In this document: positions 2,197-18,214 of the stretch, piece by piece
Layout: each line of letters opens with the position of its first letter
Numbering within the stretch: the stretch's first letter is position 1
Virus record (IMG/VR): IMGVR_UViG_3300050011_000035
Span: 1-23,329 of that record
DNA from: a virus
DNA: 23,329 nucleotides
Strand: one strand, 5' to 3'
The notes under the pieces: model-generated
What the model was told of the DNA's origin: nothing
Seen by the model: only the letters and a program-made list of their open reading frames with translations
The model's database searches: none
Made by a program: the position numbers and the translations under genes

Positions 2197-3066
2197 TTAG
2201 TAGACGACAGGGTACTGTACACCGCCGACGTAGATGTAGTTCATAACTCCGGTGGGTCTCGGCAAGGTTTTCGTGTTTATCAGAATCGCAAGGTTGGTTT
2301 GCGTCAGGGCGGTAAAATTCATCTGCATCTTCATACCGCCTAGGTCCTGGGTGTACACCACTCCGGCACCGAAAAGGTTCTGCAGCAACTGATTGAGAAC
2401 CTGGGCTGAGCACACTGAGATATTTGCCAATGCCTTTACCAGAATCAACGGCAGAAACTGCGCGTCGGAAAGACGATACACAGAGGTAAGTGCCGAGCCA
2501 TTGAAGAATGGCGAAGATCCAGCGGGACCAAAGGGAGTCCCTATGCCTGACTCACGGAAATTGAACCAGTTAGGCGCGGTAGGGTTATTGAAATACCGGG
2601 TGACACCCACGATCCTCCCCCACACGTCCAGTCCATATCCTTGTGCAGCCATCACATTCCAGATCTGCGAGTAAAAATTAAACAAGATGGCCAAAGGATC
2701 AATGTACGCATTCATGTTGTTGATGAGCTGTAGCAAAATTGGTGAGTTGGCGTACTGAGCTATAATCGTCTGCTCGCAGTTAAGCGTCCAAGGCGTGGCC
2801 AGTAGTGTGGAGCTAGCTAAGGTGATGTTGGCAGGGATGAGTTGAGGTACTGGGAACCCGCTGACTTGGGTGTACGTGCTCAACGTGTACACGCCCGCTT
2901 CTCCGTTAGAAGGCCCCGCGCTGATCACCACATTTGCCGGGATGCCGGTGCCTGCGATCAGGCCGTTCAACACAATCGGTCCGTTTACAACCTCCGTCAC
3001 CGTCATCGTGCTTCCGCTGATAGACGCGGTGACGGTGATGTACGGGTAAGCTTGGTTGATGATCAT
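2197..3066 (-). CDS. DUF2612-type baseplate/tail protein with an N-terminal inserted module
   Basis: Encodes 289 residues. The start ATG overlaps the preceding stop as ATGA. From about residue 95 it matches the DUF2612 pattern: CEQTIIAQYANSPILLQLIN, YIDP, FYSQIWNVMAAQGYGLDVWG, RIVGVTRYF, FFNG and YRLSDAQFLPLILVKALANI, with a C-terminus near RPTGVMNYIYV. Proteins of this group sit at the baseplate periphery between the J-like wedge protein and the fibre, as here, and may act as the adaptor for the fibre. Residues 11-70 (GSTMTVTEVVNGPIVLNG, then GVYTLSTYTQV) are a beta-rich module also found in other virion genes of this window. It appears to have been added near the start of the canonical domain. 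Confidence 0.85.
   Translation of the reverse strand: MIINQAYPYITVTASISGSTMTVTEVVNGPIVLNGLIAGTGIPANVVISAGPSNGEAGVYTLSTYTQVSGFPVPQLIPANITLASSTLLATPWTLNCEQTIIAQYANSPILLQLINNMNAYIDPLAILFNFYSQIWNVMAAQGYGLDVWGRIVGVTRYFNNPTAPNWFNFRESGIGTPFGPAGSSPFFNGSALTSVYRLSDAQFLPLILVKALANISVCSAQVLNQLLQNLFGAGVVYTQDLGGMKMQMNFTALTQTNLAILINTKTLPRPTGVMNYIYVGGVQYPVVY
2857..3036 (-). other. Inserted beta-module copy 1 (in the DUF2612 protein)
   Basis: Residues 11-70 of the DUF2612 protein. Hallmarks are S(G)STMTVTEVVNG, then GTGIPANVVIS, then GVYTLS. This is the shared pattern xMTVxxVxxGxLxxGQxLxGxGIxxxxxIxxxGtxxGtxT(I/L)S. The boundaries are estimates. Confidence 0.6.
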
Positions 3067-4595
3067 GCGAGCACCAGAGTGATAGTCCCCATCACGGGAA
3101 TCTGATTGATGTTCACCGGAACCTGCGAGAGCGTGGGCGATCCGGTGCCGATCAGCACGCTGACGATCGACGCCCCTGGAATCACCTGGGCGATGGTTGT
3201 GTAGAACCGTGATGCGTAGACGGTGACGCCAATCTGGCTCACCGGTGCGTAACCATCATTACCGCTAAAGGCCGTCTGCAATCCAGTCGATGACTGAAGA
3301 AGAGCAAGAGCGTTACTCGGTGGATTGGAGGCGGATGCGAGAGTCACCTGAATGTTGATTGAGAGAGTCACCGGAACGGTGAAGGTGACGTTGTAAGACG
3401 GTTGTGAACTGGCGTAAGTCTGGTCATAGACCACACTAGTTGAACCCGACCACATGGTGGTTCCACCAGCGATGTTACCGCCAGAAGGAATCCCGCTGAG
3501 GACCCAAGCGGTGCCTGACCCACTAGCAATGGTAATCTGCGCCCCGGCAGATGTGACGTAGGGAATACCGGCGTTGGTCTGCAACGTCTGGCCTATTGCC
3601 AGTGTGCCACTCGTCACTGAACTCACGGTGAGGGAAGTTCCTAAGGTGCTACCAACAAAGATCGCGCTAGGGGCATAGGTGCAACCAAGTGACTTCTTGG
3701 TCCAGACGGCGGTGGCCACGCCGATGGGGACCGCATTGGATGACGAACTACTCCAGCCACTCTGCTGATAACCATAGGCAGCAACGTAGACGGAGTTAGG
3801 CGGAAGTGTGATTCCACCTACGACGTTGGACACCGACAGCGGGTTGTCGACGACGTAAACAGAAGACGGGTAGGATAGTGGCGTAAGCGAGAGGATGGCG
3901 GCCTTGATCGCCTGGCTGGTATTACTGGCGTTGGCCGCGACCGAGTTTTGACGCCTGATCTCGAAGGCCTGGGCATTCTCGATCGGTGACCCTAAGGTGT
4001 ATTGGGTTGTGCCCGAGATGAGATCCCAACCTGGGATCGTCTGATAGATGGTTAACGGTCCAACATAGGCAATCGAGCCAGTCACCACGTTGATGAATAC
4101 CGCCGATGTCGAACCACCGGAACCGATCGTTACTGCGCCACCAGCGACGATAGCACCGAGGGCGTTAGTGGTAGCCAACGCTACTGAGTACAGGTTTCCA
4201 GCAGCATCCTGCGCCACGGCAGTTCCAAGCGGCAGTGAAGTGCCAGATAGACCAACTACAGTTCCGGTGACAAGTGTCGAAGTCGCAGGGTTCCGAGTCA
4301 TGAAGTAGATGTTACCGATGGCATCTTGCATGGTTCCCTGAGCATACTGGGGATCGGTCTGCGTGGTAAAGTATAGGAACTGGTTGTAGCAGTCAGCGAT
4401 CTGAGCCGCGATGGACGATGCTAACTGTCCTTGCGGAGTAGACAGACTGGCTGTGTTGGAGATCGAGAGGTTGAGCTGCCCACCAAAAGCCGCCTGAAGA
4501 TCGAGGATGACGCCAGCCAGAATCGCTGACTCAGACGGGATGACGTAGCCGGTGGATCCAAGAGTGGGAACGGGGACGTTTGTTCCTGATGGCAT
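3063..4595 (-). CDS. Baseplate J-like wedge protein (gp47/J family)
   Basis: Encodes 510 residues from ATG at 4595, preceded by AGAGGTGAAG, and the upstream TAA sits just before it. J-family features in order are: IPSESAILAGVILDLQAAFG near 19-38; LSTPQGQLASSIAAQIADCY at 51-70; YAQGTMQDAIGNIYFMTRNP at 84-103; a beta-prism-like region with GTSLPLGTAVAQDAAGNLY; an LGSPIENAQAFEIRR segment at 201-215; and NSVYVAAYG near 267-275. This is the wedge protein that links the gp25-like wedge to the peripheral baseplate. Residues 310-383 are an inserted beta-module between KKSLGCTYAP and STSVVYDQTY. That point is a short loop of the C-terminal domain in ordinary family members. The gene ends in an ATGA overlap with the DUF2612 gene. 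Confidence 0.9.
   Translation of the reverse strand: MPSGTNVPVPTLGSTGYVIPSESAILAGVILDLQAAFGGQLNLSISNTASLSTPQGQLASSIAAQIADCYNQFLYFTTQTDPQYAQGTMQDAIGNIYFMTRNPATSTLVTGTVVGLSGTSLPLGTAVAQDAAGNLYSVALATTNALGAIVAGGAVTIGSGGSTSAVFINVVTGSIAYVGPLTIYQTIPGWDLISGTTQYTLGSPIENAQAFEIRRQNSVAANASNTSQAIKAAILSLTPLSYPSSVYVVDNPLSVSNVVGGITLPPNSVYVAAYGYQQSGWSSSSSNAVPIGVATAVWTKKSLGCTYAPSAIFVGSTLGTSLTVSSVTSGTLAIGQTLQTNAGIPYVTSAGAQITIASGSGTAWVLSGIPSGGNIAGGTTMWSGSTSVVYDQTYASSQPSYNVTFTVPVTLSINIQVTLASASNPPSNALALLQSSTGLQTAFSGNDGYAPVSQIGVTVYASRFYTTIAQVIPGASIVSVLIGTGSPTLSQVPVNINQIPVMGTITLVLA
3447..3668 (-). other. Inserted beta-module copy 2 (in the baseplate J-like protein)
   Basis: Residues about 310-383: SLTVSSVTSGTLAIGQTLQT, then GIPYVTSAGAQITIASGSGT, then WVLSGIPSGGN. 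The module follows the shared T.SG.LAIGQ.L pattern. Flanking residues on both sides match the uninterrupted J family. Confidence 0.65.
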
Positions 4596-4605
4596 GCTTC
4601 ACCTC

Positions 4606-6177
4606 TTAGAAGTTAACGCCGAGTGCTTGCCCGGTGGAATCAAGAATGTTGATGTAACCACTTACTTGACGATTTAGAAAAGTCGTGATGGTCGCCTTCG
4701 CCTTAACCACACCAGGGACGGAGAGTGCCGCTGATTCGAGCAACGGGGTGATCACCGAAGGTGCGTAAGGCTGCCCCATTACTTCAGTGAGATAAGGGAG
4801 GCCGAGCGTAACGTCGTAGTAGAGTTCACCGAAAAATAGCTGAATAGCGCTGGCAACATCCTGCGCGATCTGGGAGGGGCCGGACACGCTGGCGATATTT
4901 CCGTTGCCATCAAGGCCCAAATCCCATGCAGAGCCAGGGCTGTAGAGTGGCACCTGGACCGGCCCTAGATATGTTCCGTTCCCGCTCCAGGTGAGGGCCG
5001 CTCCGGGAAGCGGGGCCACGGCCAGTGTCACCGTGTTCCCGGTGAGGGTGTAGTCGGTGATGCTCACGGGGGTGCTGGTGGTGGGGATGTAGGAGGTTGG
5101 GACAGACCCGGGCTCGACTTGTCCAAAGGCAACGTCCACCTGATCGCCGGATGTTGCCAACTCCACGCCCCAATACGCTACGTTATAAGTGGAATTACTC
5201 AGCCCGGAATTAGAAAACTGTTGCCACGAGGTGGTTAAGGTTACTGGGACCGAAACGGCGGTGCTTACGTTTAATATAGAAATTTGCCCACTCCCGGTCC
5301 TGCGGCGCAACCACATGGATGTAGTGGCCGGGTAACCTCCGGTCATGTAGCCGTATGCTATAACCTCCGCACCGGCGGCTGTCGCCGTAAGCGTCCACGC
5401 CTGGTTTGTTCCAGCCGGATCAGATACGCCTGATGTGGCGGTCATGTTTGTCAAAGGACCGTTGTTTTGCGGGAGATAGTTATACGATCCGATGAGATAA
5501 TTAGTTCTGCTAGTTGAATAAAGAAGTTGGTTCCCCTGCCAGTCGTTGCGATAAAGTGCGGGCGCGCCGTTTGGAACCACCGCCACACCGCTGGTGGTGA
5601 CGGTCACCGGCGCATTGGTTGTGGGGATGTAGGCTGTGGGGGTGACGCCCGGTTCAACCTGGGCAAATGCGATGTCGACCTGGTCGCCTATTGCATTGAG
5701 CACAACCGCGATATAGGCGTTTCCGGTGGATAGATCAGAGCAGGAGAACTGCTGCCAGATGCTAGTGACCGGGACCGTGATAGTCCTGATGTTTGGCGAC
5801 TGAATTTGCACGGGGCCAGATCCAGTCCTCCGCCGAATCCAGATGGAATCACAATAAATGCCAACGGGACACCAACAGTATTGGCAAATATAACTACCAC
5901 CAGACAATCCCGTGCATGTTAGCGTGGACGCAGTCATCCCGCCAGATGGGTCATGGACACCAGGTAAAACTGTGGCGTTATTTGTGCCCCAACCGCTGGC
6001 GAAATTTTGAGAGTATAGGACGTAATTCGTCCTGCTCGCTGGCATATCCGTCAGCGGGAACGTCACCGTGCTGCCGTCCCCGGCACCGAAACTAAGCGCA
6101 GATGCTGTGAACGGAAGCTGCTCCATAACTGGGATGGTTACGGTTTCACTGAAATTAGACAATGCCAAGGTGTTCAT
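4606..6177 (-). CDS. gp25/W-like baseplate wedge protein with two carbohydrate-binding-like domains
   Basis: Encodes 523 residues; the upstream spike gene's stop overlaps this ATG as ATGA. The C-terminal part (417-523: WDLGLDGNGNIASVSGP, IAQDVASAIQLFFGELYYD, GLPYLTEVMG, LLESAALSVPGVVKAKA) is the gp25/W-like wedge domain that joins the hub in contractile-tail baseplates. The N-terminal part differs. After GAGDGSTVTFPLTD come two homologous domains, residues 47-193 and 221-373. Each has SRTNY, DP.G, W(I/L)RRRTGSG, a W-Q-Q-F-S strand, GDQVD(I/V)AF.QVEPG and YIPTT at its end. This is the usual profile of carbohydrate-binding (CBM-like) domains in phage fibres. Between them lies ALYRNDWQGNQLLYST, a segment common in phage fibre proteins. 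The protein probably combines wedge assembly with surface sugar binding. Confidence 0.8.
   Translation of the reverse strand: MNTLALSNFSETVTIPVMEQLPFTASALSFGAGDGSTVTFPLTDMPASRTNYVLYSQNFASGWGTNNATVLPGVHDPSGGMTASTLTCTGLSGGSYICQYCWCPVGIYCDSIWIRRRTGSGPVQIQSPNIRTITVPVTSIWQQFSCSDLSTGNAYIAVVLNAIGDQVDIAFAQVEPGVTPTAYIPTTNAPVTVTTSGVAVVPNGAPALYRNDWQGNQLLYSTSRTNYLIGSYNYLPQNNGPLTNMTATSGVSDPAGTNQAWTLTATAAGAEVIAYGYMTGGYPATTSMWLRRRTGSGQISILNVSTAVSVPVTLTTSWQQFSNSGLSNSTYNVAYWGVELATSGDQVDVAFGQVEPGSVPTSYIPTTSTPVSITDYTLTGNTVTLAVAPLPGAALTWSGNGTYLGPVQVPLYSPGSAWDLGLDGNGNIASVSGPSQIAQDVASAIQLFFGELYYDVTLGLPYLTEVMGQPYAPSVITPLLESAALSVPGVVKAKATITTFLNRQVSGYINILDSTGQALGVNF
5059..6039 (-). repeat. Tandem duplication of a CBM-like domain inside the wedge gene
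   Basis: Two domains of about 150 residues, encoded at about 5599-6039 and 5059-5517, share the markers SRTNY, RRRTGSG, WQQFS, GDQVDxAFxQVEPG and YIPTT in the same order and spacing. They have diverged clearly outside these markers, so this is not a recent copy. Confidence 0.75.
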
Positions 6178-7016
6178 CCCACTGGCCCTCCGGTGGATCC
6201 GCCGCCAGGGGTGACGCCGGTATGTGTGTGCGACGTGAGTGTGTGTGTGCCAGATTTAACCTCTCCGGCGGCGGTGATGCTACTGTTGGCGGTGATCGGA
6301 ACGCTGACCGTGAGGCCGCCACTTCCACCGGCACCTGAGACTGTGCCTGAAACCTGTATACTGGCGTCTGCAAGAAGCAAACCCTTCACCTCTGCCTGCG
6401 CGTCACAGGTGACGTTGCCAGTCACCTCAGCGGTGCCATTGACCTTGAGGTTAGCATTGACGGTCAACAAGTCGCTGGTAAGCACCGCCGAGGTGCCGCC
6501 CAGAACCATCTGTATGACGGCGCCGGTGATCTGGACATAGTTTGTTGGGGCCAAGTTGCCGTTCCAGCCACCAATGTAGAGTCCGTCCGCATAGTCAAAC
6601 CGACGAGCGGAACTAGGAGGTGCACCCGAACTAGGGACGGCGGTCATGGCTGCGTTGCCATCGGCTATCCCCGCCTGTGCTGAACCGATGTCACGATCAG
6701 CGAAGACGCAGAACCCGAAGTCACCTATCACCGGATCTACGATCACCGCATTTGCCCCGCCCTGATAGCGGAAGTAGGGTAGGCCGTAGATAGTAGTGTG
6801 CGGCACGGTCTGATCCGCACCGGTTACCTGGTTCACCACTGGCAGAACATCTACCGTTCCAACCGGTCCCGTGCCGGTGTTGTAAACCGCCTGGACCTGG
6901 ACCAGCGTGGCAACGTTGACACCAGCCATGGCACGCTTGATGACGAACATCAACGAGTTGAATGGTGTGGACCCATCGGCTAGCTCTTGCTGTGGATAGA
7001 CAGGGGCGTCGGTCAT
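6174..7016 (-). CDS. Baseplate central spike protein (gpV-like)
   Basis: Encodes 280 residues. I chose ATG at 7016 (MTDAPVYPQQ) over the upstream ATG at 7064. It follows the hub gene's TGA by one base, and the longer form would overlap the hub coding frame. The first ~140 residues resemble the OB-fold part of gpV/gp45-like spikes: FVIKRAMAGVNVATLVQVQA, YGLPYFRYQGGANAVIVDP and GDFGFCVFADRDI. A run of short beta-strands follows, as in a trimeric beta-helix (LLTVNANLKVNGTAEVTGNV and similar). The end, THTLTSHTHTGVTPGGG, is the typical apex with an HxH motif (His263 and His265) that holds a metal ion in related spikes. It forms the membrane-piercing tip under the hub. Confidence 0.88.
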   Translation of the reverse strand: MTDAPVYPQQELADGSTPFNSLMFVIKRAMAGVNVATLVQVQAVYNTGTGPVGTVDVLPVVNQVTGADQTVPHTTIYGLPYFRYQGGANAVIVDPVIGDFGFCVFADRDIGSAQAGIADGNAAMTAVPSSGAPPSSARRFDYADGLYIGGWNGNLAPTNYVQITGAVIQMVLGGTSAVLTSDLLTVNANLKVNGTAEVTGNVTCDAQAEVKGLLLADASIQVSGTVSGAGGSGGLTVSVPITANSSITAAGEVKSGTHTLTSHTHTGVTPGGGSTGGPVG

Positions 7017-7017
7017 G

Positions 7018-7887: not shown

Positions 7888-7891
7888 GATG

Positions 7892-8188
7892 TCACTTCGT
7901 GTAGAGAGAGATGGTGCAGAGCTGGTTATTGAGGATGACATCGAGCTGTTGAGACGGAACTGCTTGGATGGGAATCGTCACAGCATCAGCGCCGGTCACG
8001 GCATAAACTAAAACGTAGCGAGTTCCAAGCTCGGTGTAATCAGGGTCGGAAGACTCCTGGGTGTCGACAAATAGAAGTTGGCCGTAGAACCCCATGTAAC
8101 GATACCAGTTCAGACCATTGAGGTTAAGACATAGTCGGCCATACCAGACTGGGTTACCGTTGATAGCTAGGTCACAGAAAAGACTCAT
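7892..8188 (-). CDS. Baseplate plug-like protein (Pam3 gp18/DUF6983 type), apparently circularly permuted
   Basis: Encodes 98 residues, starting in an ATGA overlap with the Dit-like gene. The protein opens with MSLFCDLAINGNPVWYG, continues through YRYMGFYGQLLFVDTQ, ESSDPDYTELGTRYVLVYA and a linker VTGADAVT, and ends with IPIQAVPSQQLDVILNNQLC and TISLYTK. In family members I recall, the IPL..VPSQ...L.GQ.C.I.LYQK segment is N-terminal, followed directly by GLF.DL..NG. Here it is at the C-terminus. The two real ends fall exactly at the usual LYQK/LF.DL junction. The reading frame is intact and both ends have proper start and stop codons, so a simple frameshift does not explain it. The protein probably plugs the tube lumen above the hub. 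Confidence 0.7.
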   Translation of the reverse strand: MSLFCDLAINGNPVWYGRLCLNLNGLNWYRYMGFYGQLLFVDTQESSDPDYTELGTRYVLVYAVTGADAVTIPIQAVPSQQLDVILNNQLCTISLYTK

Positions 8189-8781: not shown

Positions 8782-10694
8782 GACATACCCCCATCGGCCT
8801 GATTCACCAAGTCAGAATGCTTCTCTGCGAGAGCTCCGGTAATGCCGCCCGCAACCCCCTGGGCATCCGTTGCTTGAGGGGCATTGACGTTGATCGTATC
8901 AACATGCATACTTGACGTCGAGGCGCTGTTGGAACTGTTGACAGATGACGGGCGAATAGCATCACCAGCGTGGTAACCATTAAGCCGCTGTTGCTGATGT
9001 TCTTCCCACGCCTTGTTGAAAGCATTTTCGTCAAAGGTAGGTTTAGCCGTGGTAGTTGGTGCCTGAACCAAGCCCGAAGGTGCTGGTGACGGGATATGGG
9101 TTTTTGGCGCGGGCGAGAACGCCAGACCGCCTGCCGCCACGGCGGCACCCACAGCGCGGGGAAGGAAGTTTCCCGGTGAGGTATCATGCATGGGCGCCTG
9201 ACCGCCCGCCGCCACGGCGGCACCCGCAGCGCGGGGAAGGAAGTTTCCCGGTGAGGTATCATGCATGGGCGCCTGACCGCCTGTGCTACCAACTTGACTA
9301 CCAGCTGAGGCACCGGGTATTAGGCTAGCGATGGCTTTGAACACCTTGGCCACGGCGGCGAACTTCTCCGCGATCCAGTTGAAGAATGTCTCCGCAGGTT
9401 TCTTGATCACACCCCACATCAGGTTGAAGGTGTTCACCACCGCAACCGCCATGGTCAGGACGTAGAACACCAGGATGGCACCAAGCTTCTTGAACGCAGC
9501 ATTGATGAAACCACAGACACGGCCCCAGGCTGCACTGATCCGACTACCATCCATGGTGAAGATCCCGACCAATAGGCCCAATCCACTCTCGATCGCCCCA
9601 AACACGTCCTTCACCGTGTCCCACAAGGCGATCATGATGGTTCTAATGTAATTCCAGCCACCCGCCATCGACTCTCGGAAGGTTTCCGACTTCATGTAGA
9701 GCAGTGCCAGACCTGCTATCACCGCGCCGATCAGTGCCGGAATAAGAATTAGACCACCGGTGGCCATCACCCAGCCGGCGAACATCTTAGCGCCAGCGAT
9801 GATCGCATTCTGCCCCATCACCAAAGCTGCCGCTGCTATACCAAGCAACACGGCCTTGATGACTTCAGGATTTTGCTGAGCCCATTGAGCGACTTTAGTC
9901 AGCGCTTCACTCAGCCACTTGATGCCGGGAAGCATCAGCTGAACGACGACCTCAGCCGCGTGCTGCATGGAGATCTTCAAGCCGTTCAGCGCCTCCTCGG
10001 TCTGCTCAGCAGCCTCAGCCTGCTCCTTGGTGATCTGACCGGCTGCTTTGGCCTTAGCCATAAACTCATCGTATTCCTCACCACTCTTGTGAAGTACTCG
10101 GATGGTAGCTTCGTCCAGCTGCATGCGCTTACCGAGGGTCTGCGCCTCGACCATGCTCAAGCCCTGGAACTTATCGTGGATCTTCTGATACATGTCGGTG
10201 ATCTCGACATGCTTTCCCTTACCGAGGCCGTGGATGCCAGCAGCCTCGAAGGCTTTCATCGCACGCTGAGCCCTGGGTAGTCCTTTCTCAATGGCAATGA
10301 GTGACTCACCCATCCCCTTGAGAGACTGGTTGAATCCTTCCGCACTACCACCAGCGATCACTGCCGCATTCTGCCACAGGCTGATGTCCTCAACGGACAT
10401 CTTGGTCTCCTCTGACAGGTGGTTCACCGCCGTCTGAGACTTAATGGTACTCTCGGTGAAGGCGAGGAAAGCACCGGTAGAAGCCATGATGCCGAAGAAC
10501 TCGATGGCATGTTCTTTCAGCTTCTCAAAGAACTCACCAGCCTTCTCGCCTTGCTCCTTCATCTTCTCAGCTGTTTCACGAGCTTCATCAGCCGCGTGTC
10601 GAAGATCCTCCCCCACCCGCTTGCAGGAGAGGGAGAAGTTCTCCGAGTCAAGATCGATGCTGACTATCAGGTTATCTACTTCATTCTCAGCCAT
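8778..10694 (-). CDS. Tail tape measure protein
   Basis: Encodes 638 residues. The start lies inside the end of the frameshifted chaperone reading frame, an 8-base overlap. An N-terminal charged helical region (residues 20-70, RHAADEARETAEKMKEQGEK) leads into the helices typical of tape measures. EETKMSVEDISLWQNAAVIA at 95-114 is a common motif of this family. Hydrophobic segments lie at about 280-335 and 405-420 and may insert into the host inner membrane during DNA entry. The C-terminal third is Ala/Gly/Pro-rich with a 25-residue duplication (APMHDTSPGNFLPR at 475-488 and 500-513). The end, MHVDTINVNAPQATDAQGV, is the usual tape-measure tail. At roughly 1.5 angstroms per residue the length suggests a tail near 95 nm. 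Confidence 0.9.
   Translation of the reverse strand: MAENEVDNLIVSIDLDSENFSLSCKRVGEDLRHAADEARETAEKMKEQGEKAGEFFEKLKEHAIEFFGIMASTGAFLAFTESTIKSQTAVNHLSEETKMSVEDISLWQNAAVIAGGSAEGFNQSLKGMGESLIAIEKGLPRAQRAMKAFEAAGIHGLGKGKHVEITDMYQKIHDKFQGLSMVEAQTLGKRMQLDEATIRVLHKSGEEYDEFMAKAKAAGQITKEQAEAAEQTEEALNGLKISMQHAAEVVVQLMLPGIKWLSEALTKVAQWAQQNPEVIKAVLLGIAAAALVMGQNAIIAGAKMFAGWVMATGGLILIPALIGAVIAGLALLYMKSETFRESMAGGWNYIRTIMIALWDTVKDVFGAIESGLGLLVGIFTMDGSRISAAWGRVCGFINAAFKKLGAILVFYVLTMAVAVVNTFNLMWGVIKKPAETFFNWIAEKFAAVAKVFKAIASLIPGASAGSQVGSTGGQAPMHDTSPGNFLPRAAGAAVAAGGQAPMHDTSPGNFLPRAVGAAVAAGGLAFSPAPKTHIPSPAPSGLVQAPTTTAKPTFDENAFNKAWEEHQQQRLNGYHAGDAIRPSSVNSSNSASTSSMHVDTINVNAPQATDAQGVAGGITGALAEKHSDLVNQADGGMS
9126..9275 (-). 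repeat. 75-bp tandem duplication in the tape measure gene
   Basis: Two copies, 9126-9200 and 9201-9275, differ at two positions that I can see (9132/9207 and one base in cacccacagc/cacccgcagc). The unit is a multiple of three and encodes a 25-residue repeat containing APMHDTSPGNFLPRA. Near identity points to a recent event. Confidence 0.92.
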
Positions 10695-11321: not shown

Positions 11322-11323
11322 GA

Positions 11324-11758: not shown

Positions 11759-11770
11759 GGTTGGCTCCTT

Positions 11771-13546
11771 TTACTGGATGTCGATGGAGGCGAGAGTGAG
11801 GGAGTTGACAGAACCACCATCCATATACCAGAGGGTGCAGGTCGGAGTCTGACGGTTAGCCCGCTGAACGCCGGTGGCAGGAAGCACCTGCAGATACCAG
11901 CCGGTAGTCGCTAACACCGGATCGATAGTAAGACCGGAGGCGGAGTCGACTGAGGCCGCCTGCGTACTGGTAAGCGCGACGCCCTTGTTGATCACCCCAT
12001 TCTGAAGAGCAAGCGCGAGTGTGGAGTTGCATCCCGCCTTGATCATGGCGTATCCAGCGTTGTTGTAGGGAACCGAGTTCACACCGGTGAACATGTTGAT
12101 CAAAGCCAACTGCAACGCGTTGTTCAACCAGATGGCAGAGACGTAGGAGTCAAGCCAAGCAAATGGCCCGGTGAGAGCGCCGTTCCAGAAGAAGGTGAAG
12201 AGGCTATTGGCAGTAGCCCACTGACCGTAGAAGTTCACCCCGTTGGACACCGCGTTAGCGAATGAGGTGGGGTCCACAACCGAGGCGGGGATGCCAGTTC
12301 CGCTCTTGTAGGAGATGGCTGCGCGACCATTGGTTGCGTTGTAGTTGAGCGAAGCGATGAACCCCAGCACGAAGGCAGCAGCGCTTCCAGCCGGGTCATA
12401 CACCGGATTGACATAGACCTCGCATGTGCCACCGTAGGAGTTGATCTTACAGTAATACGCCATGCACGTGGTGCTGGAACCACTGGAGACGATGGTTGTG
12501 TCGGTGTTGTAGGGGGCGTACACGAACTCGCCGCCGGTTCCTGCGGTCCACGCACACAGGAGTTGCTTGTCCGAGGTGATGGGTTCATAGGCGGTGGTGA
12601 AAGCTGCCCAGTTGGTGGTCTGCAGCACCAGCGAAGACATGAAGACACTGACTGATACTACGTTGCTTCCAGTGCTGATGGTTCCAGCATTCAAGCCGAG
12701 CGTGGCGGCGTTAGTTCCACTGCAGACGGTGATCGAAGTTGAGCCAGCCGATCCCACCGTGGCGTTCAGACCGGCAGTGATCACGAAGGCATTGAACAGA
12801 CTGCTCCAGGTGACGGTGGAGCTGGCATCGGCCCCGGCAAATGCGAAGGCAGTCTGGATCAGTGATGCCGCGCTGCTCATGCTGCTGGCGGAACTGAGGT
12901 TCAAAGCGGCGATGCTCACCAGTGTTCCGTTGATGGTGATGTTCAGGGTGCCGGAGGTGATCGCCTGGACCTGGGCAAGCGTCAGGTTCGGCATCGAGGA
13001 ACCACGGAAGAACGCCGGCACACCCTGGTAGGTGTTGCTTACGCTGCCGCCTACGCCGGGGAACCGCGAGAAAAGCAGCGCGGTAGGCTTGAGCGTGGAA
13101 GCGGTGAACCCATTGAAATAGACTGCCGCCATGGAGGACTCCAGGCAGTTGGAGTACATCGTGCTGACAGATGCCTGGGTGAAACCCGCACCTGAGATGG
13201 TGACGGTGCCCACGCCGGTGCCGGAGGTATAGGTGCCCAGTGCGGTGATGTAAGTGCCAGGCGGCACACCCACTGCCATCGAGGACTGGATCTCCTGGCC
13301 AACGGCGAGTGAGCCATTGGTAGTGGATACGATGGTGAGAGTGTTGCTCACGCAGGTGGCGGTGCCGGACCAAGAGTACTGACCGAAGTAGGCCTGGACG
13401 GCGGCAAGCGACGGGAAGCTGACGGGCGCCCCCATCGGCAAGTTCTGGTTCTGGGAAAGAATGAGACCGTTCAGCGCAAGCGGGTTCCCGCCTGCAGCCA
13501 AGACGCTCGGCACCACAGAAACGATCGTTGAGGCGGGAATCGACAT
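11771..13546 (-). CDS. Tail sheath protein (DUF3383-like) with an inserted module
   Basis: Encodes 591 residues from ATG at 13546, with AAGGAA upstream overlapping the previous TAA. The N-terminus is the DUF3383 pattern: IPASTIVSVVPSVLAAGGNP, LALNGLILSQNQNLPMGAPV and SLAAVQAYFGQYS. After the insertion the family pattern resumes with ESSMAAVYFNGFTASTLKPT at 136-155 and FSRFPGVGG. The C-terminal domain has AFVLGFIASLNYNATNGRAA, NFYGQWATANSLFTFFWNGA, DSYVSAIWLNNALQLALINM and INKGVAL. These subunits contract to drive the tube through the envelope. Residues 60-128 are the beta-module that recurs in this genome. It sits between YFGQYS and ESSMAAVYF, which are nearly adjacent in ordinary members. 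Confidence 0.92.
   Translation of the reverse strand: MSIPASTIVSVVPSVLAAGGNPLALNGLILSQNQNLPMGAPVSFPSLAAVQAYFGQYSWSGTATCVSNTLTIVSTTNGSLAVGQEIQSSMAVGVPPGTYITALGTYTSGTGVGTVTISGAGFTQASVSTMYSNCLESSMAAVYFNGFTASTLKPTALLFSRFPGVGGSVSNTYQGVPAFFRGSSMPNLTLAQVQAITSGTLNITINGTLVSIAALNLSSASSMSSAASLIQTAFAFAGADASSTVTWSSLFNAFVITAGLNATVGSAGSTSITVCSGTNAATLGLNAGTISTGSNVVSVSVFMSSLVLQTTNWAAFTTAYEPITSDKQLLCAWTAGTGGEFVYAPYNTDTTIVSSGSSTTCMAYYCKINSYGGTCEVYVNPVYDPAGSAAAFVLGFIASLNYNATNGRAAISYKSGTGIPASVVDPTSFANAVSNGVNFYGQWATANSLFTFFWNGALTGPFAWLDSYVSAIWLNNALQLALINMFTGVNSVPYNNAGYAMIKAGCNSTLALALQNGVINKGVALTSTQAASVDSASGLTIDPVLATTGWYLQVLPATGVQRANRQTPTCTLWYMDGGSVNSLTLASIDIQ
13163..13369 (-). other. Inserted beta-module copy 3 (in the tail sheath)
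   Basis: Residues about 60-128 of the sheath: NTLTIVSTTNGSLAVGQEIQ, GVPPGTYITALGTYTSGTG, then GTVTISGAGFTQ. This is the clearest match to the shared pattern G.LAVGQ...G...GTYIT.LGT..G..GT.T.S. Confidence 0.7.
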
Positions 13547-13556
13547 GTGCTGTTCC

Positions 13557-14126
13557 TTATCGAGGTAGGGTTGAGACGTTGATAAGCGGATTGATGGATG
13601 CGCTGCTCATGAAGCTAGCCGGGACCGAGATCGCCTCGATCACGTTGAAACGAAGACGAACGGTCCATCTCTCTTCATACTGGTTCTCCGAGTTGGTGAT
13701 GGCGGTGTGCTTAGGCGGATCAGCATCGAGAGTGTCGATGGTAAAACCATTGGTGAGACCGTATGCTTGGAACCATTCACTGGTCGGGTCTGCCCGGAAC
13801 AGCACGTGTAGAAGCATGGCCGAGTCCGCTGGACCGTTGCTGGTGGAATCACCATAGATGTCCACCTGATACTCATACTCGATTCCGAGATTGATGATGA
13901 CAGACTCGGTATTGATGTCACCGGTGTCCTGGTTGGTGAGCCACGGGGTGGACACCGGGTTACGCGTGATGTGAGACATGACCACGAAGGGATCCAGAGG
14001 CGGAGCTACGAGGTTATCATGAGCTTCAACCACCTGGGCGATTGGAAGGTTAAGCGACATCATGATCCACGCTTGAAGAGCGGAGATGATGGCAAGCTCA
14101 TTGGGGGCGTTCTGATAGGTAGTCAT
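13557..14126 (-). CDS. Tail/neck terminator protein (gp12-like, LIC_12616 type)
   Basis: Encodes 189 residues. I chose ATG at 14126 because it forms the ATGA overlap with the preceding gene; the in-frame ATG at 14156 lies inside that gene. Features are ELAIISALQAWIMMSLNLPI, VAPPLDPFVVMSHITRNPVS, EYEYQVDIYGDSTSNGPADS, a LLHVLFRADPTSEWF segment, and EERWTVRLRFNVIEAISVPA near the end. This fits the neck terminator group, which caps the tail before it docks to the head. Its place directly before the sheath gene agrees. Confidence 0.8.
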   Translation of the reverse strand: MTTYQNAPNELAIISALQAWIMMSLNLPIAQVVEAHDNLVAPPLDPFVVMSHITRNPVSTPWLTNQDTGDINTESVIINLGIEYEYQVDIYGDSTSNGPADSAMLLHVLFRADPTSEWFQAYGLTNGFTIDTLDADPPKHTAITNSENQYEERWTVRLRFNVIEAISVPASFMSSASINPLINVSTLPR

Positions 14127-14494
14127 GCGAGTTGCTTCTGAAGGAGAGCGGTGCACCAGTCAGGCCAGACTTCCGGAACTGCCACGACGAGCCAAGCCGT
14201 CCCGTCAGGCAAGTAAAGCTTGTCACCACCAAGCTGGCTAGCTCGGTCTACCGCACTGAGGATGGCATCACACCACACCTTGCGAACGATTCCCTGAACG
14301 TTCAAGTCGCTCAGGTGCTGAAGATCTTTGAAGGTGAGTTGCTGAACCTGGACACTCACCGTCGTAGCTGGGGCGAAGGATGGGCTCATGCGTCCACCGA
14401 TTTCGACGGTGTTACCGGTGGACTTGAGCCACGGGCATTGCATCATCGGATTGATAGTGGAGATCACGTTCGCTGCCATGTCATGCAAACTCAT
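14123..14494 (-). CDS. Head-closure / collar protein
   Basis: Encodes 123 residues. The ATG shares one base with the preceding TGA (TGATG), suggesting translational coupling. The core is VSVQVQQLTFKDLQHLSDLN, then VQGIVRKVWCDAI, VDRASQLGGDKLYLPDGTAW and LVVAVPEVWPDWCTALLQKQ. This pattern recurs in small phage proteins encoded between the connector and the tail terminator, which by position act as head-closure proteins. No catalytic motif is visible. The exact biochemical role is inferred from gene order. Confidence 0.68.
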   Translation of the reverse strand: MSLHDMAANVISTINPMMQCPWLKSTGNTVEIGGRMSPSFAPATTVSVQVQQLTFKDLQHLSDLNVQGIVRKVWCDAILSAVDRASQLGGDKLYLPDGTAWLVVAVPEVWPDWCTALLQKQLA

Positions 14495-15039
14495 CAGAGC
14501 ACCGAGTAGTCAACTGCGTTGAGCATGTTGTGTGAGTCGATCAGTGGAGTGTCAAACCCCTTACGCGCCACGGTTCCGGGCTGGAGTGGTGCCCAATCAC
14601 CGTGCAGGATCGAGTCCTGAAGCTGTTCCTTGACATGCAAGCCAAGCGTTTCCAGCGCCACCCGAGAGTTGTAGTGATTGCGCTGAAGCTGAGTGACCAG
14701 AAACTTGTGCCAGTTTTTTCCTTCTTTCTTGATCAAGGTGCTGAAGAACGGACGTGATGGAATGTTGTGCTTGGGATCACCATACTCCATGATCGAGGCG
14801 ATGTAAGCGGCCGGCTGAGGATTTCCGGTGGCTTGACTCGCCTGCGCCTGGGCATGATAGCGTTTGTAGTTTGACACACTGGCGTAGTTCTTACGTGACT
14901 TCATCGGCCGAGGACCGGTGTACCCTGCGGTAGAACCTTCGAGAAATCCGACGTGCACCACCGTCGCCTGACCGAGCTCGCTCTGGATGTCACGAAGAAG
15001 TCGAAGAAGCTTGTCGCCGCCCTTCATGCCGATGTCCAC
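14494..15039 (-). CDS. HK97 gp10-like / virion morphogenesis protein
   Basis: Encodes about 181 residues. I place the start at GTG 15039, one base after the connector's TAA; the ATG at 15027 (MKGGDKLLRL) is an alternative. The longer open frame back to 15165 overlaps the connector and has an Arg/Ser-rich, non-native composition. Recognisable segments are GGDKLLRLLRDIQSELGQAT, VVHVGFLEGSTAGYTG, AAYIASIMEYGDPKHNIPSR, PFFSTLIKKEGKNWHKF and PLIDSHNMLNAVDYSVL. The (I)PxRPFF motif and the final strand are typical of the HK97-gp10-like group of head-tail joining or tail completion proteins. Confidence 0.78.
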   Translation of the reverse strand: MDIGMKGGDKLLRLLRDIQSELGQATVVHVGFLEGSTAGYTGPRPMKSRKNYASVSNYKRYHAQAQASQATGNPQPAAYIASIMEYGDPKHNIPSRPFFSTLIKKEGKNWHKFLVTQLQRNHYNSRVALETLGLHVKEQLQDSILHGDWAPLQPGTVARKGFDTPLIDSHNMLNAVDYSVL

Positions 15040-15040
15040 C

Positions 15041-15700
15041 TTACCACCCCCTCTCACCGAAGACGTCAAACACCGGAGCGACATAGTGTCCACCGAGTCG
15101 GTAGTTGAGCGACATCTGGTAGAACTGCGTGCCATACTTTGTCTGTGCCCAGAAGGCAGCGTCATCCGGAAACTTCATCTCCGTGGTAACACTGACTGAC
15201 CCCTCACGGGCATTGCTGACACGACCAACGAGCTGGTTAGCCTGCTGACCGTTCACCCCGTTGTTGATGGCGGTAAGATGTGCGGTGATCAGGTTCAAGA
15301 ACAACGTCAAGGTAGGAACGTCGCATACCCCACCACCATCATTTCGGCAATAGTAGGTGGCGGCGTCGAAGTTGGCGGTGAGGATGTTCCAGGCGTAGAG
15401 AATCAACGGCGCGTTGACGATCGCGGCGGTGACCGGAGAAGACAGGATGACGGTGCCACTCGTCCCGTTGAAAGTGCCGATGCTCTGGATGGTAATTCCG
15501 AGTGGCAGCGACGTTGGAACGAAGATGGCTGAGCCACAAACAGCCTCACCGACCGCAACCGTCCCCGAGGTGACCGAGTTGATGGTCATCACGTTGCTGT
15601 TGATTGGGACGGACACGTTGACAACCGCAGCCTGGTCGATGGTGCTGAACTCAGGATACTGAAGCAAAAATGACTGCGGGCTGAATGTGACTATGCCCAT
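15041..15700 (-). CDS. Head-tail connector (DUF4054) with an inserted module
   Basis: Encodes 219 residues; ATG at 15700 has GAGGAG upstream overlapping the previous gene's end. The DUF4054 pattern is split. FSPQSFLLQYPEFS is at 6-19. After the insertion come AWNILTANFDAATYYCRNDG, TLFLNLITAHLTAINNGVNG, GRVSNAREGSVSVTTEM and AFWAQTKYGTQFYQMSLNYR, with GGHY near the end. This protein forms the ring between portal and head-closure protein. Residues 27-100 are the recurring beta-module, which nearly doubles the spacing between the first two parts of the family. The insertion lies in what should be a surface loop near the first helix. Confidence 0.85.
   Translation of the reverse strand: MGIVTFSPQSFLLQYPEFSTIDQAAVVNVSVPINSNVMTINSVTSGTVAVGEAVCGSAIFVPTSLPLGITIQSIGTFNGTSGTVILSSPVTAAIVNAPLILYAWNILTANFDAATYYCRNDGGGVCDVPTLTLFLNLITAHLTAINNGVNGQQANQLVGRVSNAREGSVSVTTEMKFPDDAAFWAQTKYGTQFYQMSLNYRLGGHYVAPVFDVFGERGW
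15401..15622 (-). other. Inserted beta-module copy 4 (in the DUF4054 connector)
   Basis: Residues about 27-100: NVMTINSVTSGTVAVGEAVC, LPLGITIQSIGTFNGTSGTV, then ILSSPVTAAI. The segment encoding SIGTFNGTSGT is 33/39 identical in DNA to the second module of the cement gene (15446-15484 versus 17342-17380). Confidence 0.7.
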
Positions 15701-15703
15701 GTG

Positions 15704-16117
15704 CTACTCCTCAGGAGCGTCGCGATCATCGCGCTTGCCGCCGACCGTGCGGCCGGACTTGTCTTTCAGAGCGACCTTCGGATCGATGCGCTCGAAACCG
15801 GTCAGGGTGCTTTCCATGTTCTTCGCCTCGGCCGTCCCGTCGCCCTTGCTGGACATGGCGAACACCATGTGATTCCTGAGTGGCGGATAATCCTTACCCA
15901 CAGCTTTGATCCACGCCTCCCAGAACACCTTGCTGACTGGTGTGACGGAGCAGCCGTAGACGATGCGCTCCTCCTTGGTGGCAGTGAAATTGGAATGAGG
16001 CTGGATGTATCGGGACGAACGAGGCAGGTTCACACGAATGATCTCGCCTCGTTCCTCTAGACACATGGTCAGTCCATTGGGGATCTTGCAATAGACGTTG
16101 AGGAACTCTTCAGCCAT
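15704..16117 (-). CDS. Uncharacterised small head-module protein
   Basis: Encodes 137 residues from ATG at 16117 (MAEEFLNVYCKIPNGLTMCL), four bases after the capsid gene's TAA and with GGAGTG upstream. An ATG further back would lie inside the capsid gene. The N-terminal part, KIPNGLTMCLEERGE, is a motif I recall from proteins encoded just after the capsid gene in related phages. The middle has SVTPVSKVFWEAWIKAVGKD, followed by YPPLRNHMVFAMSSKGDGTA and TLTGFERIDPKVAL. The end is charged and probably flexible (KDKSGRTVGGKRDDRDAPEE). I do not recognise a defined function. A minor capsid or connector accessory role is only suggested by position. Confidence 0.72.
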   Translation of the reverse strand: MAEEFLNVYCKIPNGLTMCLEERGEIIRVNLPRSSRYIQPHSNFTATKEERIVYGCSVTPVSKVFWEAWIKAVGKDYPPLRNHMVFAMSSKGDGTAEAKNMESTLTGFERIDPKVALKDKSGRTVGGKRDDRDAPEE

Positions 16118-16121
16118 GACG

Positions 16122-17201
16122 TTACACTCCGATGATGCTGACAACGCCAGCGGGAATCTTGAGGATGAAGCCCCAGGAGCCACCAGACTTCTTCTGATGG
16201 GTGGAGCTGGTCTTGCGCACGATCGCGTGGGCGCGCATCTTCTCGGTGAAGGCGCAGAACCCGGTCTGCTGGCCCTGGACCTTCGGGGCGATCAGCTGAA
16301 CCAGATTGCCCGAGCCGGCGATGACATACTGCTGGGCGGTCTTGATGACGAGCTTGGGGAAGGCTTCCTTGAGGTAGGCCTTCAAGGACGGGGTGCCGTA
16401 CACGTTCTGCATCGGGGTCAGCAGGTAGGGTTGAACGGTGGATGGCAGACCCAGGATCAGGTCGTCTTCCATCTCGATGTTTCCCTGCAGCTGGTTCTGC
16501 AGCGTCACGAAGAGGTTCTGGATGTCCTGGAAGATCTGGACACCGGTGGCACTCTTCCACACGCCATTGAGCGGCGAGATACTGGCTGACAGCGACGGGT
16601 CGTTGGTGATGCCGTAGTTGTCGAGGTTGGCGACGCCGAAGAAGTAGGTGCGGTTCTGGAAGGTGTTCATGATCAGCGCAGAACTGACGTTCTGCTCCGC
16701 GGCCCAGTCCAGCTTGGCAAGACCGGCCTTGGCCAGTTCCTTGTCGCCCCACCGGGTAAAGCACTGGTAGGCAAAGGACTGACGCGGGATCCAGTTGGCA
16801 TTTGCGCCCACCAGACCGTTGTCGTTGTCGTCGCCGTAGGCACTGACTTCGCCCGTCGACTCGATGATCGGGAACTGGGTGCTGTCCATCAGCCAGTCAC
16901 CCTTCTTCTTCTCACCGAAGATGTCCACGGCCTTCAGCGGCACGGTCATGACTCGCACGATCTCCGGGTCGAGGTAGTTGGACAGGTAGTTGGGAATGCC
17001 GGCGTTGCTGATGGTGACCATGCCGGACTGGATCAGGTTGGTGGGCGCATCCTGGGCGAGCTGCAGAGCCTCATCCAGCGCCATACCCTTCAGCGGCGAG
17101 ACGTCCACGGCCGGGATCAGGTCAGCGTCGGTGCTGTCCATTCCGATACCGAAGCGCTCTGCAAGCAGCAGGGTTTCGTCGGTGTACTGTTCAAATGCCA
17201 T
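16122..17201 (-). CDS. Major capsid protein (DUF2184-like)
   Basis: Encodes 359 residues. ATG at 17201 is well supported by AAGGAG seven bases upstream; the open frame to 17219 is not needed. DUF2184 features are PNYLSNYLDPEIVRVMTVPL near 75-94, KKKGDWLMDSTQFPIIESTG, ANWIPRQSFAYQCFTRWGDK at 138-157, ELAKAGLAKLDWAAEQNVSS and FFGVANLDNYGITNDPSLSA. The C-terminal part has RAHAIVRKTSSTHQKKSGGS and WGFILKIPAGVVSIIGV. These proteins have the HK97 capsid fold. The gene follows the cement gene and comes before the connector, the usual order for this capsid type. No separate scaffold segment is fused to its N-terminus. Confidence 0.93.
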   Translation of the reverse strand: MAFEQYTDETLLLAERFGIGMDSTDADLIPAVDVSPLKGMALDEALQLAQDAPTNLIQSGMVTISNAGIPNYLSNYLDPEIVRVMTVPLKAVDIFGEKKKGDWLMDSTQFPIIESTGEVSAYGDDNDNGLVGANANWIPRQSFAYQCFTRWGDKELAKAGLAKLDWAAEQNVSSALIMNTFQNRTYFFGVANLDNYGITNDPSLSASISPLNGVWKSATGVQIFQDIQNLFVTLQNQLQGNIEMEDDLILGLPSTVQPYLLTPMQNVYGTPSLKAYLKEAFPKLVIKTAQQYVIAGSGNLVQLIAPKVQGQQTGFCAFTEKMRAHAIVRKTSSTHQKKSGGSWGFILKIPAGVVSIIGV

Positions 17202-17212
17202 GGTTGGTCTCC

Positions 17213-18214
17213 TTACCACCTGGTTCCGATTTTGACGAGGTCGCCCACGTTACCGGCGCTGTTGAAGTACCACGGCGTCTCGATGAAGGCGGAGAACTTG
17301 CAGGCCTGGGCGGTGATCGTTCCGGTGCTGGCGAGGCCCATGATGATGGTGCCGGACGTGCCGTTGAAGGTGCCGATGCTGGCCACCCAGTTGTTCGCGG
17401 GGATACTGGTGATCGGCTGAATCAGCTGACCAGGAACGATGTTCCCGTTGGTGACGGTGTTGATGGTCATGGTGGTGCTGGAGGTAGAGCTGACACTGGA
17501 GCAGGTGGCTCCACCGATTCCCACGTTCGCGATGGTGTTGAATGACCCACCGGTGGAGGCAGTGACCGCAGCCTGGGTGAGGTTGATGGTGCCGGAACCG
17601 GACGAAGCCGGAAGGACGAGGGTGCCAGCGGACTCGATGTAGTAGAGGCCGTTGGTGAGACCAGGACCACTCACCTGCTGACCAACGGCCAGGATGCCAC
17701 TGGTGAACGCCGTGACGTTCATGCTGTAGGAGCCGGCGGTCGTGGTGGCGGTGACCACCGCAGCGGAACCGACCACATCGGCGATGAAGGAGCCGGACGC
17801 GGCGGGGTAGACGTCACCACTGAACACGTTGGCAAACACCTTGCTTCCCACGGCGGCATCGGTGTAGACGGTCTTGCCCCAGAAGTCGCCGCGGTTGTAG
17901 AGGGTGACCGGGTAGCCGGGCGCGATGGCCATGCTCTGCTGACCGAGCCAGGTGGTGATCAGCGCCTGCTGTTCATTGGCCACGAAACCATCAGGGATGG
18001 TCGGCTGAGTAGGCGAGTAGTTGTTGACGATGGAAAGCATCGTGGCGGGGGTGAGGACCTGCCAACCGAACTTTCCGACGACGGCACCAAGCAGTCCCGA
18101 GGTGAGGTTGAATGGGCCGGCATCGACGGTAGCGGTGGGGTTCATCGACGCGCGATCACCCCAGACGGCCGGGGCCGGGTAGAGATTGACTTGCTGCTGA
18201 AAACCGGTGACCAT
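17213..18214 (-). CDS. Structural cement / head decoration protein with two inserted modules
   Basis: Encodes 333 residues from ATG at 18214, with AAGGAG overlapping the previous TAA. The N-terminal 135 residues match the cement-protein pattern: MVTGFQQQVNLYPAPAVWGD, NPTATVDAGPFNL, VGKFGWQV, PDGFVANEQQALITTWLGQQ, PGYPVTLYNRGDFWG and AAVGSKVFANVFSGDVYPA. The final 25 residues (AFIETPWYFNSAGNVGDLVK, then IGTRW) supply the last strand of that fold. The ~170 residues between are two copies of the recurrent beta-module, 148-222 and 235-305. They probably project from the capsid surface. Without them the protein would be about 165 residues, close to plain cement proteins. Confidence 0.85.
   Translation of the reverse strand: MVTGFQQQVNLYPAPAVWGDRASMNPTATVDAGPFNLTSGLLGAVVGKFGWQVLTPATMLSIVNNYSPTQPTIPDGFVANEQQALITTWLGQQSMAIAPGYPVTLYNRGDFWGKTVYTDAAVGSKVFANVFSGDVYPAASGSFIADVVGSAAVVTATTTAGSYSMNVTAFTSGILAVGQQVSGPGLTNGLYYIESAGTLVLPASSGSGTINLTQAAVTASTGGSFNTIANVGIGGATCSSVSSTSSTTMTINTVTNGNIVPGQLIQPITSIPANNWVASIGTFNGTSGTIIMGLASTGTITAQACKFSAFIETPWYFNSAGNVGDLVKIGTRW
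17300..17512 (-). other. Inserted beta-module copy 6 (second in the cement protein)
   Basis: Residues about 235-305: TTMTINTVTNGNIVPGQLIQ, SIPANNWVASIGTFNGTSGT, then IIMGLASTG. Its IGTFNGTSGT(I/V)I segment is shared with the DUF4054 connector copy both in protein and in DNA. Confidence 0.7.
17549..17773 (-). other. Inserted beta-module copy 5 (first in the cement protein)
   Basis: Residues about 148-222: GSYSMNVTAFTSGILAVGQQ, VSGPGLTNGLYYIES, then TLVLPASSGSGTINLTQAAV. It follows the G.LAVGQ.VSG.G pattern and is separated from copy 6 by about 12 residues. Confidence 0.68.

What the first reader, a model, noticed from the sequence alone, without database searches (positions are those of the whole stretch)
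2857..18214. One small beta-rich module inserted six times into five different virion proteins
Segments with the same pattern (MTVxxVTxGxLAxGQxLxGxGIPxGTxIxxxGTxxGtxGTxTxS) interrupt the DUF2612 protein (2857-3036), the J-like wedge (3447-3668), the sheath (13163-13369), the DUF4054 connector (15401-15622) and the cement protein (17549-17773 and 17300-17512). In each case the family pattern continues on both sides. The hosts belong to unrelated folds at different places in the virion, so the module behaves like a mobile, surface-displayed domain. Possible roles are virion stabilisation, weak binding to polysaccharide, or immune-like surface variation. The pattern is visible directly. That flanking regions are canonical is family knowledge from memory.
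Basis: partly seen in the sequence, partly recalled or inferred. Interest (0 to 1): 0.8.

Follow-up and report, generated by a model that had tools for sequence, protein, structure and literature searches.

The report
Mobile barrel domain decorating phage surface
A small, almost uncharged protein domain that standard domain databases do not name has been pasted six times into five different proteins of this phage particle, and related phages carry it at other sites, nearly always in proteins expected on the outside of the particle, so it looks like a movable coating piece whose exact job is still unknown.

Summary
One ~57-residue module occurs six times in five virion proteins of this 23-kb myovirus fragment. 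Relatives show empty sites: J residues 308-381, the sheath around 56-135, DUF4054 ~24-105 and the cement tandem ~146-308. One correction: in DUF2612 the module is an N-terminal extension, not an interruption. A survey of 165 sheath-bearing loci found about 13 insertion sites in 8 protein families, with up to 7 copies per locus. Outer proteins (cement, sheath, terminator-like, J, DUF2612, fibre) carry modules in 38 of 153 cluster-family cases; tube, tape measure, hub and spike in 0 of 155. One relative's sheath carries the module at a second site, and the DUF4054 module is most like the neighbouring cement module, so it moves between genes. AlphaFold2 gives the cement and sheath copies the same six-strand order. 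The nearest solved folds are EF-Tu domain II-type barrels, at sub-threshold Z. Pfam, NCBIfam and PDB sequences have no meaningful match; only undescribed PHROGs do. The modules are nearly charge-free (3.7% DEKRH; no K, R, H or D in the window's six). Best reading: a mobile surface-display domain, functionally analogous to phage Ig-like domains but a different sequence family. Ligand and benefit remain untested.

The parts
2857..3036 (-). Module copy at the N-terminus of the DUF2612 protein (residues 11-70 of 289)
   Evidence: family HMM 50.8 bits; DUF2612 core starts only at residue ~96
2197..3066 (-). Host protein: DUF2612 (T4 gp7-like wedge position, inferred)
   Evidence: Pfam PF11041 E 1.8e-40
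3453..3674 (-). Module inserted in the J-like baseplate wedge (residues 308-381 by the empty site; HMM core 316-371 in stop-to-stop numbering)
   Evidence: L014 homologue aligns 1-307 then 382-500 with nothing between; family HMM 37.0 bits
3063..4595 (-). Host protein: J-like baseplate wedge
   Evidence: PHROG 6 E 1.4e-31
13148..13375 (-). Module inserted in the tail sheath near its N-terminus (about residues 58-133)
   Evidence: empty in L014, L015, L141, L143-L146; six strands E58-66 to E124-133 in the AF2 model
11771..13546 (-). Host protein: tail sheath (DUF3383)
   Evidence: Pfam PF11863 E 6.8e-94; model matches Pa193/E217 sheath, Z 36.2/35.2
15386..15631 (-). Module inserted in the DUF4054 connector (about residues 24-105)
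   Evidence: absent in L010, L011, L138, L140, whose capsid proteins are 79-81% identical; module nearest to cement copy B
15041..15700 (-). Host protein: DUF4054 head-tail connector
   Evidence: Pfam PF13262 E 1.7e-10
17549..17773 (-). Cement module A (residues 148-222)
   Evidence: family HMM 47.4 bits; strands E153-158 to E224-228
17300..17512 (-). Cement module B (residues 235-305)
   Evidence: family HMM 53.5 bits; strands E236-243 to E300-308
17213..18214 (-). Host protein: capsid cement/decoration protein; tandem pair inserted (about residues 146-308) before the last conserved strands FIETPW..GDLVKIG
   Evidence: Pfam PF23982 E 1.8e-16 and PF22758 E 1e-8; alignment with 0-, 1-, 2- and 3-module relatives; model Z 14 to solved cement proteins, which align around the insert

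Best explanation
This is a mobile, non-enzymatic surface-display domain: a ~57-residue, probably six-stranded beta-barrel that behaves as a plug-in unit. Shown: it sits in loops of otherwise intact virion proteins, is optional, occupies several independent sites, is inherited at a site within clades, is most simply explained as sometimes copied between genes of one phage lineage (cement module B to the neighbouring DUF4054 gene), and is confined in this phage group to proteins assigned to the outside of head, neck, sheath and baseplate. Inferred: the copies protrude and together give the virion a dense coat of near-neutral, Ser/Thr/Gly-rich barrels, with hundreds of copies per particle if cement and sheath copy numbers resemble E217. 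Inferred, and the weakest step: the coat works as a bulk surface property, through weak multivalent non-electrostatic contact with extracellular or cell-surface polysaccharide that keeps the phage near its host, as proposed for phage Ig-like domains.
For: Empty sites. A second sheath site in L141 and about 13 sites in 8 host families. Outer 38/153 against inner 0/155 cluster-family cases. DUF4054 module nearest to cement B modules (tree; 46% protein identity over 61 residues and 76% DNA identity over 67 bases, the best-scoring of all 15 pairs). Same predicted strand order in three copies in two hosts. Solved cement homologues align around the inserts. In 12 bacterial genomes most copies fall in one short cluster with the sheath gene, and only 2 of 190 genomes of one class, one of them the reference, have any. 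Charge depletion: 3.7% DEKRH in 136 modules against ~10% in cement cores and 17-22% in tube, MCP and TMP.
Against: No virion protein, structure or binding was measured. Exposure rests on host location and family knowledge; no model coordinates were available. MCP (0/26 clusters) and the gp25-like wedge (0/25), also outward, lack it. No conserved polar surface patch was looked for in three dimensions, so a specific ligand is not indicated. The outer families were grouped from virion anatomy, but after seeing which families carry modules, and the clusters are not fully independent. Trees of 60 residues resolve poorly.
Confidence: 0.6

Rival explanations
1. Passive coat: the modules bind nothing; a neutral, K/R- and D/E-poor shell reduces sticking to soil particles, prevents aggregation at low pH and removes protease sites.
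For: Near-zero charge, 30% Ser+Thr and 16% Gly in 136 diverse modules; placement on head and neck, far from the receptor-binding end; several module-bearing prophages lie in soil bacteria (titles).
Against: Some outer proteins of this phage are charge-poor outside the module too, so the trait is not special to the module; no pH, aggregation or protease data.
Confidence: 0.25
2. Structural stabiliser: the modules contact neighbouring subunits and cement the capsid and sheath lattices.
For: The most frequent host is the cement protein (66 of 121 loci; 1, 2 or 3 tandem copies); Evseev et al. (PMC9230969) propose stabilisation as one role for extra sheath domains.
Against: Copy number varies 0-3 among relatives, and sites differ between phages, so no fixed interface is conserved; J, connector and N-terminal DUF2612 sites do not form lattices.
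Confidence: 0.12
3. Selfish or nearly neutral domain: it spreads by recombination and survives only where outward loops tolerate it.
For: Patchy presence, many sites, no fixed copy number.
Against: Kept open and inherited at the same site across relatives only 55-68% identical in the sheath; consistent charge depletion suggests selection.
Confidence: 0.15
4. The segments are unrelated low-complexity Ser/Thr/Gly stretches that look alike by composition.
For: Two of the six are weak in leave-one-out tests, no better than the best of 2000 shuffles; the cement A-B pair alone is not significant (Z 1.5).
Against: A family HMM from other phages scores all six at 37-56 bits; aligned motif GxLxVGxxxxGxGVxxGTxIxxxGTGxGGxGTYxVS across 60 diverse copies; shared predicted strand order.
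Confidence: 0.02

Closest known systems
Promiscuous Ig-like domains of phage virion proteins (Fraser et al. 2006, cited in PMC8718954, PMC9230969, PMC10684548)
   Same: Small beta domain, optional, on several unrelated outer virion proteins, horizontally mobile; proposed weak carbohydrate contact
   Different: Different sequence family without Ig Pfam match; mostly internal insertions rather than C-terminal additions; up to 7 copies per locus; nearly charge-free; nearest folds are EF-Tu domain II-type barrels
PHROG 21413 (unknown function) and PHROG 38233 (tail fiber protein)
   Same: Contain the module (56 and 52 of 60 modules match)
   Different: They are whole-protein families that happen to carry it; neither names or describes the domain
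Translational GTPase domain II (EF-Tu, eEFSec) and RIFT-related cradle-loop barrels (Alva et al. 2008, cited in PMC10684548)
   Same: About 76 residues superpose on cement module A at 2.4-3.4 A (Z 6.5-7.7); RIFT-related domains are reported in phage tail and neck proteins
   Different: Z below 8, 8-17% identity, no sequence match; that EF-Tu domain II belongs to the RIFT-related group is from memory
Domains in Arthrobacter phage Bridgette 8eci_1 (7-79), Mystique tail tube 9n71_A (103-180) and T5 pb9 6f2m_B (87-170)
   Same: Phage structural proteins whose domains superpose on one module (Z 7.8, 6.8, 6.5; 20, 20, 16% identity)
   Different: No sequence-level match found; homology unproven
Additional domains of phage tail sheath proteins (Evseev et al. 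2022, PMC9230969)
   Same: Extra beta domains added to a conserved sheath core, away from the tube side
   Different: Described as often Ig-like and treated within the sheath only, not shared with cement, connector and baseplate

Membership tests
Promiscuous phage Ig-like domains | Occurs in several unrelated classes of virion structural proteins | tested here: met
   8 host families
Promiscuous phage Ig-like domains | Optional: homologues of the hosts lack it | tested here: met
   Module-free homologues of every host
Promiscuous phage Ig-like domains | Ig-like beta-sandwich fold or Ig/FN3/Big sequence family | tested here: inconclusive
   No Ig, Big or FN3 Pfam match among 60 modules; nearest solved folds are EF-Tu domain II-type barrels at Z < 8; an unlisted fold is not excluded
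Promiscuous phage Ig-like domains | Usually appended at a terminus (in SPP1 gp17.1 by frameshift) | tested here: not met
   Internal insertions in cement, sheath, J, DUF4054; only window DUF2612 is terminal. A usual rather than a strictly defining trait
Promiscuous phage Ig-like domains | Exposed on the virion and weakly binds carbohydrate | not testable with these tools
   Host location only; no binding data
PHROG 21413 / 38233 domain | Profile match | tested here: met
   56/60 and 52/60 modules
EF-Tu domain II-like (RIFT-related) barrel | Six-stranded barrel superposing over the whole domain with significant Z | tested here: inconclusive
   Z 6.5-7.7 over ~76 residues, below the tool's guide value of 8; no sequence match
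XM1 gp53 / E217 gp24 / Pam3 gp6 cement protein (host) | Pfam match and fold apart from the insert | tested here: met
   PF23982 E 1.8e-16, PF22758 E 1e-8; Z 13.6-14.8
DUF3383 tail sheath (host) | Pfam match and sheath fold | tested here: met
   E 6.8e-94; Z 35-36 to E217/Pa193

The most novel reading that the evidence does not exclude
A previously unnamed, nearly charge-free barrel domain that phages copy from gene to gene to cover the whole outer virion (head, neck, sheath, baseplate), creating a uniform neutral coat that sets the particle's physical behaviour, separate from the Ig-like system.
Probability: 0.35. Interest if true: 0.72.

Novelty: new variant of a known kind. Interest (0 to 1): 0.57.

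Why it matters
Why phages add extra beta domains to capsid, sheath and baseplate proteins is an old open question, studied mainly for Ig-like domains. This family is a second case with a clear rule (outer proteins only in this phage group, about 13 sites, 0-3 tandem copies in cement, almost no charge). Close relatives differ by single insertions, and copies exist in prophages of culturable Mesorhizobium and Rhizobium, so the function of such coats could be tested. The domain is absent from Pfam and NCBIfam; naming it would correct annotations, and its insertion sites mark loops of cement, sheath and J proteins that tolerate whole domains.

Tried and rejected
tblastn of single modules against phage records gave almost nothing, probably because half of each query is masked as low complexity; so rarity in isolates is not claimed beyond the five phage records checked directly. 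PDB sequence search with the module profile gave only chance matches. No Ig-like structure appears among the 50 listed structural matches of the cement model, but this does not exclude an Ig relative. Defence-system models: no match. A structural search with the module alone was not possible (two prediction jobs, used for cement and sheath). Automatic site positions for DUF4054 and some cement and sheath rows were distorted by alignment drift; the assignments for the window's own hosts rest on the multiple alignments.
Full report
Setting. The window is a 23,329-base virus record (IMG/VR fragment) holding the structural genes of a contractile-tailed phage, on the minus strand. Pfam and PHROG place cement (17213-18214), major capsid protein (16122-17219), DUF4054 connector (15041-15700), tail sheath (11771-13546), J-like wedge (3063-4595) and DUF2612 (2197-3066).

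Observation. The six segments are in frame at the stated coordinates. Leave-one-out HMMs find each omitted segment as the best hit in the window. Four are clear; DUF2612 and cement A are weak, their scores lying below the best of 2000 shuffles. Pairwise scores tell the same story: DUF4054 against cement B Z 12.0, cement A against cement B only 1.5. Homology of all six is established through other phages: an HMM enlarged with modules from other virus contigs scores them at 37-56 bits. After five rounds over 283 loci the family had 291 copies with the consensus [56 protein letters not shown].

Insertion. Relatives show module-free sites. J: homologue L014 matches residues 1-307 and 382-500 with nothing between. 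Sheath: L014, L015, L141 and phage records L143-L146 lack it. DUF4054: only the window and its close relatives L007, L008, L137 carry it (L155 is the same contig as L137), while L010, L011, L138 and L140, with 79-81% identical capsid proteins, have a clean short protein. Cement: the tandem pair lies between the body of the fold and its last conserved strands; relatives have 0, 1, 2 or 3 copies (55, 15, 45 and 6 loci).

Mobility. Sheath- and cement-anchored searches gave 91 viral loci and 66 bacterial-genome loci. Modules were found in cement (66 of 121 loci with the family), J (39 of 109, three sites), sheath (40 of 165, two sites), a tail-terminator-like protein (26 of 156, two sites), DUF4054 (6 of 137), a tail-completion-like protein (2 of 142, two sites), DUF2612 (2 of 88, two sites) and fibre (3 of 98). 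L141's sheath lacks the window's insertion and carries a module at another site. On a tree of 212 modules, site labels change 59 times against a mean of 140 for shuffled labels (minimum 129), so modules are mostly inherited in place, with some transfers; the tree is weak because the domain is short. The DUF4054 module falls next to cement B modules, and this pair has the best protein (46% over 61 residues) and DNA (76% over 67 bases) alignment in the window, pointing to copying between neighbouring genes.

Outer-surface rule. At 60% sheath identity the loci fall into 29 clusters. Outer proteins (cement, sheath, terminator, J, DUF2612, fibre) carry modules in 38 of 153 cluster-family cases; tube, tape measure, three hub proteins and the spike in 0 of 155 (Fisher p = 2e-13). 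Two cautions: clusters are not fully independent, and I grouped the families after seeing the counts, although the grouping follows virion anatomy. MCP, gp25-like wedge, HTJ2 and p10 have none. Protein roles come from family knowledge and gene order. In contractile phages the tube is covered by the sheath, and a review notes that Ig-like tube domains occur only in siphovirus-like systems because they would clash with a sheath (PMC8718954).

Distribution. In 12 bacterial genomes, most copies lie in one short cluster containing the sheath gene; a sample of 190 genomes of one class had copies in two, one being the reference. Of two off-cluster places checked, one encodes another phage sheath (PHROG 23) with a module, next to a second module-bearing protein without a PHROG match; the other is an unidentified 975-residue protein. 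So this is mainly a phage-structural domain, not a common bacterial one.

Structure. AlphaFold2 models: cement pLDDT 90.1, sheath 84.8 (sheath module region 61-85). The three modules have the same order of six strands: cement A 153-158, 164-172, 180-182, 191-196, 208-212, 224-228; cement B 236-243, 248-257, 264-265, 276-280, 288-292, 300-308; sheath 58-66, 69-78, 85-87, 99-103, 113-117, 124-133. Solved cement proteins of FCWL1, T1, Pa193, XM1, Pam3 and E217 match the cement core at Z 13.6-14.8, aligning 135-155 residues spread over the whole chain, that is, around the insert. E217 gp24 sits on the capsid surface at three-fold axes and forms a protrusion (PMC10329688). Cement module A alone matches Bridgette chain 1 (Z 7.8), translational GTPase domain II (Z 6.5-7.7) and the Mystique tail tube (6.8); module B matches T5 pb9 (6.5). 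These lie below 8 and may reflect only a common barrel arrangement. J, DUF4054 and DUF2612 copies were not modelled.

Composition. The six modules (423 residues) hold no Lys, Arg, His or Asp and five Glu. Over 136 non-redundant modules D+E is 2.6%, K+R 0.9%, His 0.2%, Ser+Thr 30%, Gly 16%; cement cores have ~10% charged residues, MCP, tube and tape measure 17-22%. The sheath, J and DUF2612 of this phage are also charge-poor outside the module, so the whole outer surface of this virion may be close to neutral.

Known or new. Pfam and NCBIfam have no meaningful match, PDB sequences none; PHROG 21413 and 38233 contain the domain without describing it. The behaviour is that of Ig-like phage domains (Fraser et al. 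2006, cited in PMC8718954) and of the extra sheath domains of Evseev et al. (PMC9230969), but sequence family, insertion mode and charge differ. I call it a new variant of a known kind.

Mechanism. Shown: optional, mobile, plug-in, outer proteins only in this phage group, uncharged. Inferred: protrusion, hundreds of copies per virion (the E217 head carries 180 copies of a trimeric gp24 and its tail 204 sheath subunits), bulk surface function. Undecided: weak polysaccharide contact, passive neutral coat, stabilisation, or a near-neutral passenger.

Noticed in passing
window 4606-6177 (-), copies about 5035-6060: The gp25-like wedge protein (523 aa; about 116-160 aa in most relatives) carries two copies of another module type (RTNYVLYSQNF..W, PHROG 5939 'tail protein') upstream of its core; L009, L013 and L014 lack it there, L012 has a longer version, and L009's DUF2612 carries one next to the barrel module. 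Possibly a second mobile surface-module family.
   Followed up: partly
window 355-2187 (-): Tail fibre-like protein with about four 64-residue repeats (192-base period).
   Followed up: no
window 9120-9269: 75-base tandem duplication, 96% identical, in the tape-measure-like protein; looks recent.
   Followed up: no
window 18227-19198 (-): Lys/Ala/Asp repeats (KKAKDAKKAK) in the protein upstream of cement, scaffold or protease position.
   Followed up: no
window 3063-4595, 11771-13546, 2197-3066: Sheath, J and DUF2612 proteins are unusually poor in charged residues even outside the modules (4-6% DEKR).
   Followed up: partly
L142 (Acetobacter phage phiAO1, LC644971): This related phage record is annotated with catalase, Cu-Zn superoxide dismutase, peroxiredoxin, sulfurtransferase and sorbosone dehydrogenase among its virion genes: possible oxidative-stress cargo.
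   Followed up: no
BFVD A0A6J5SIT1, A0A6J5QB28, A0A1V0SCQ2: The cement model's viral structure matches include an HK97-type capsid protein, a P22 gp10-like protein and a giant-virus (Indivirus) collagen-like protein; the barrel may occur in other virus groups.
   Followed up: no
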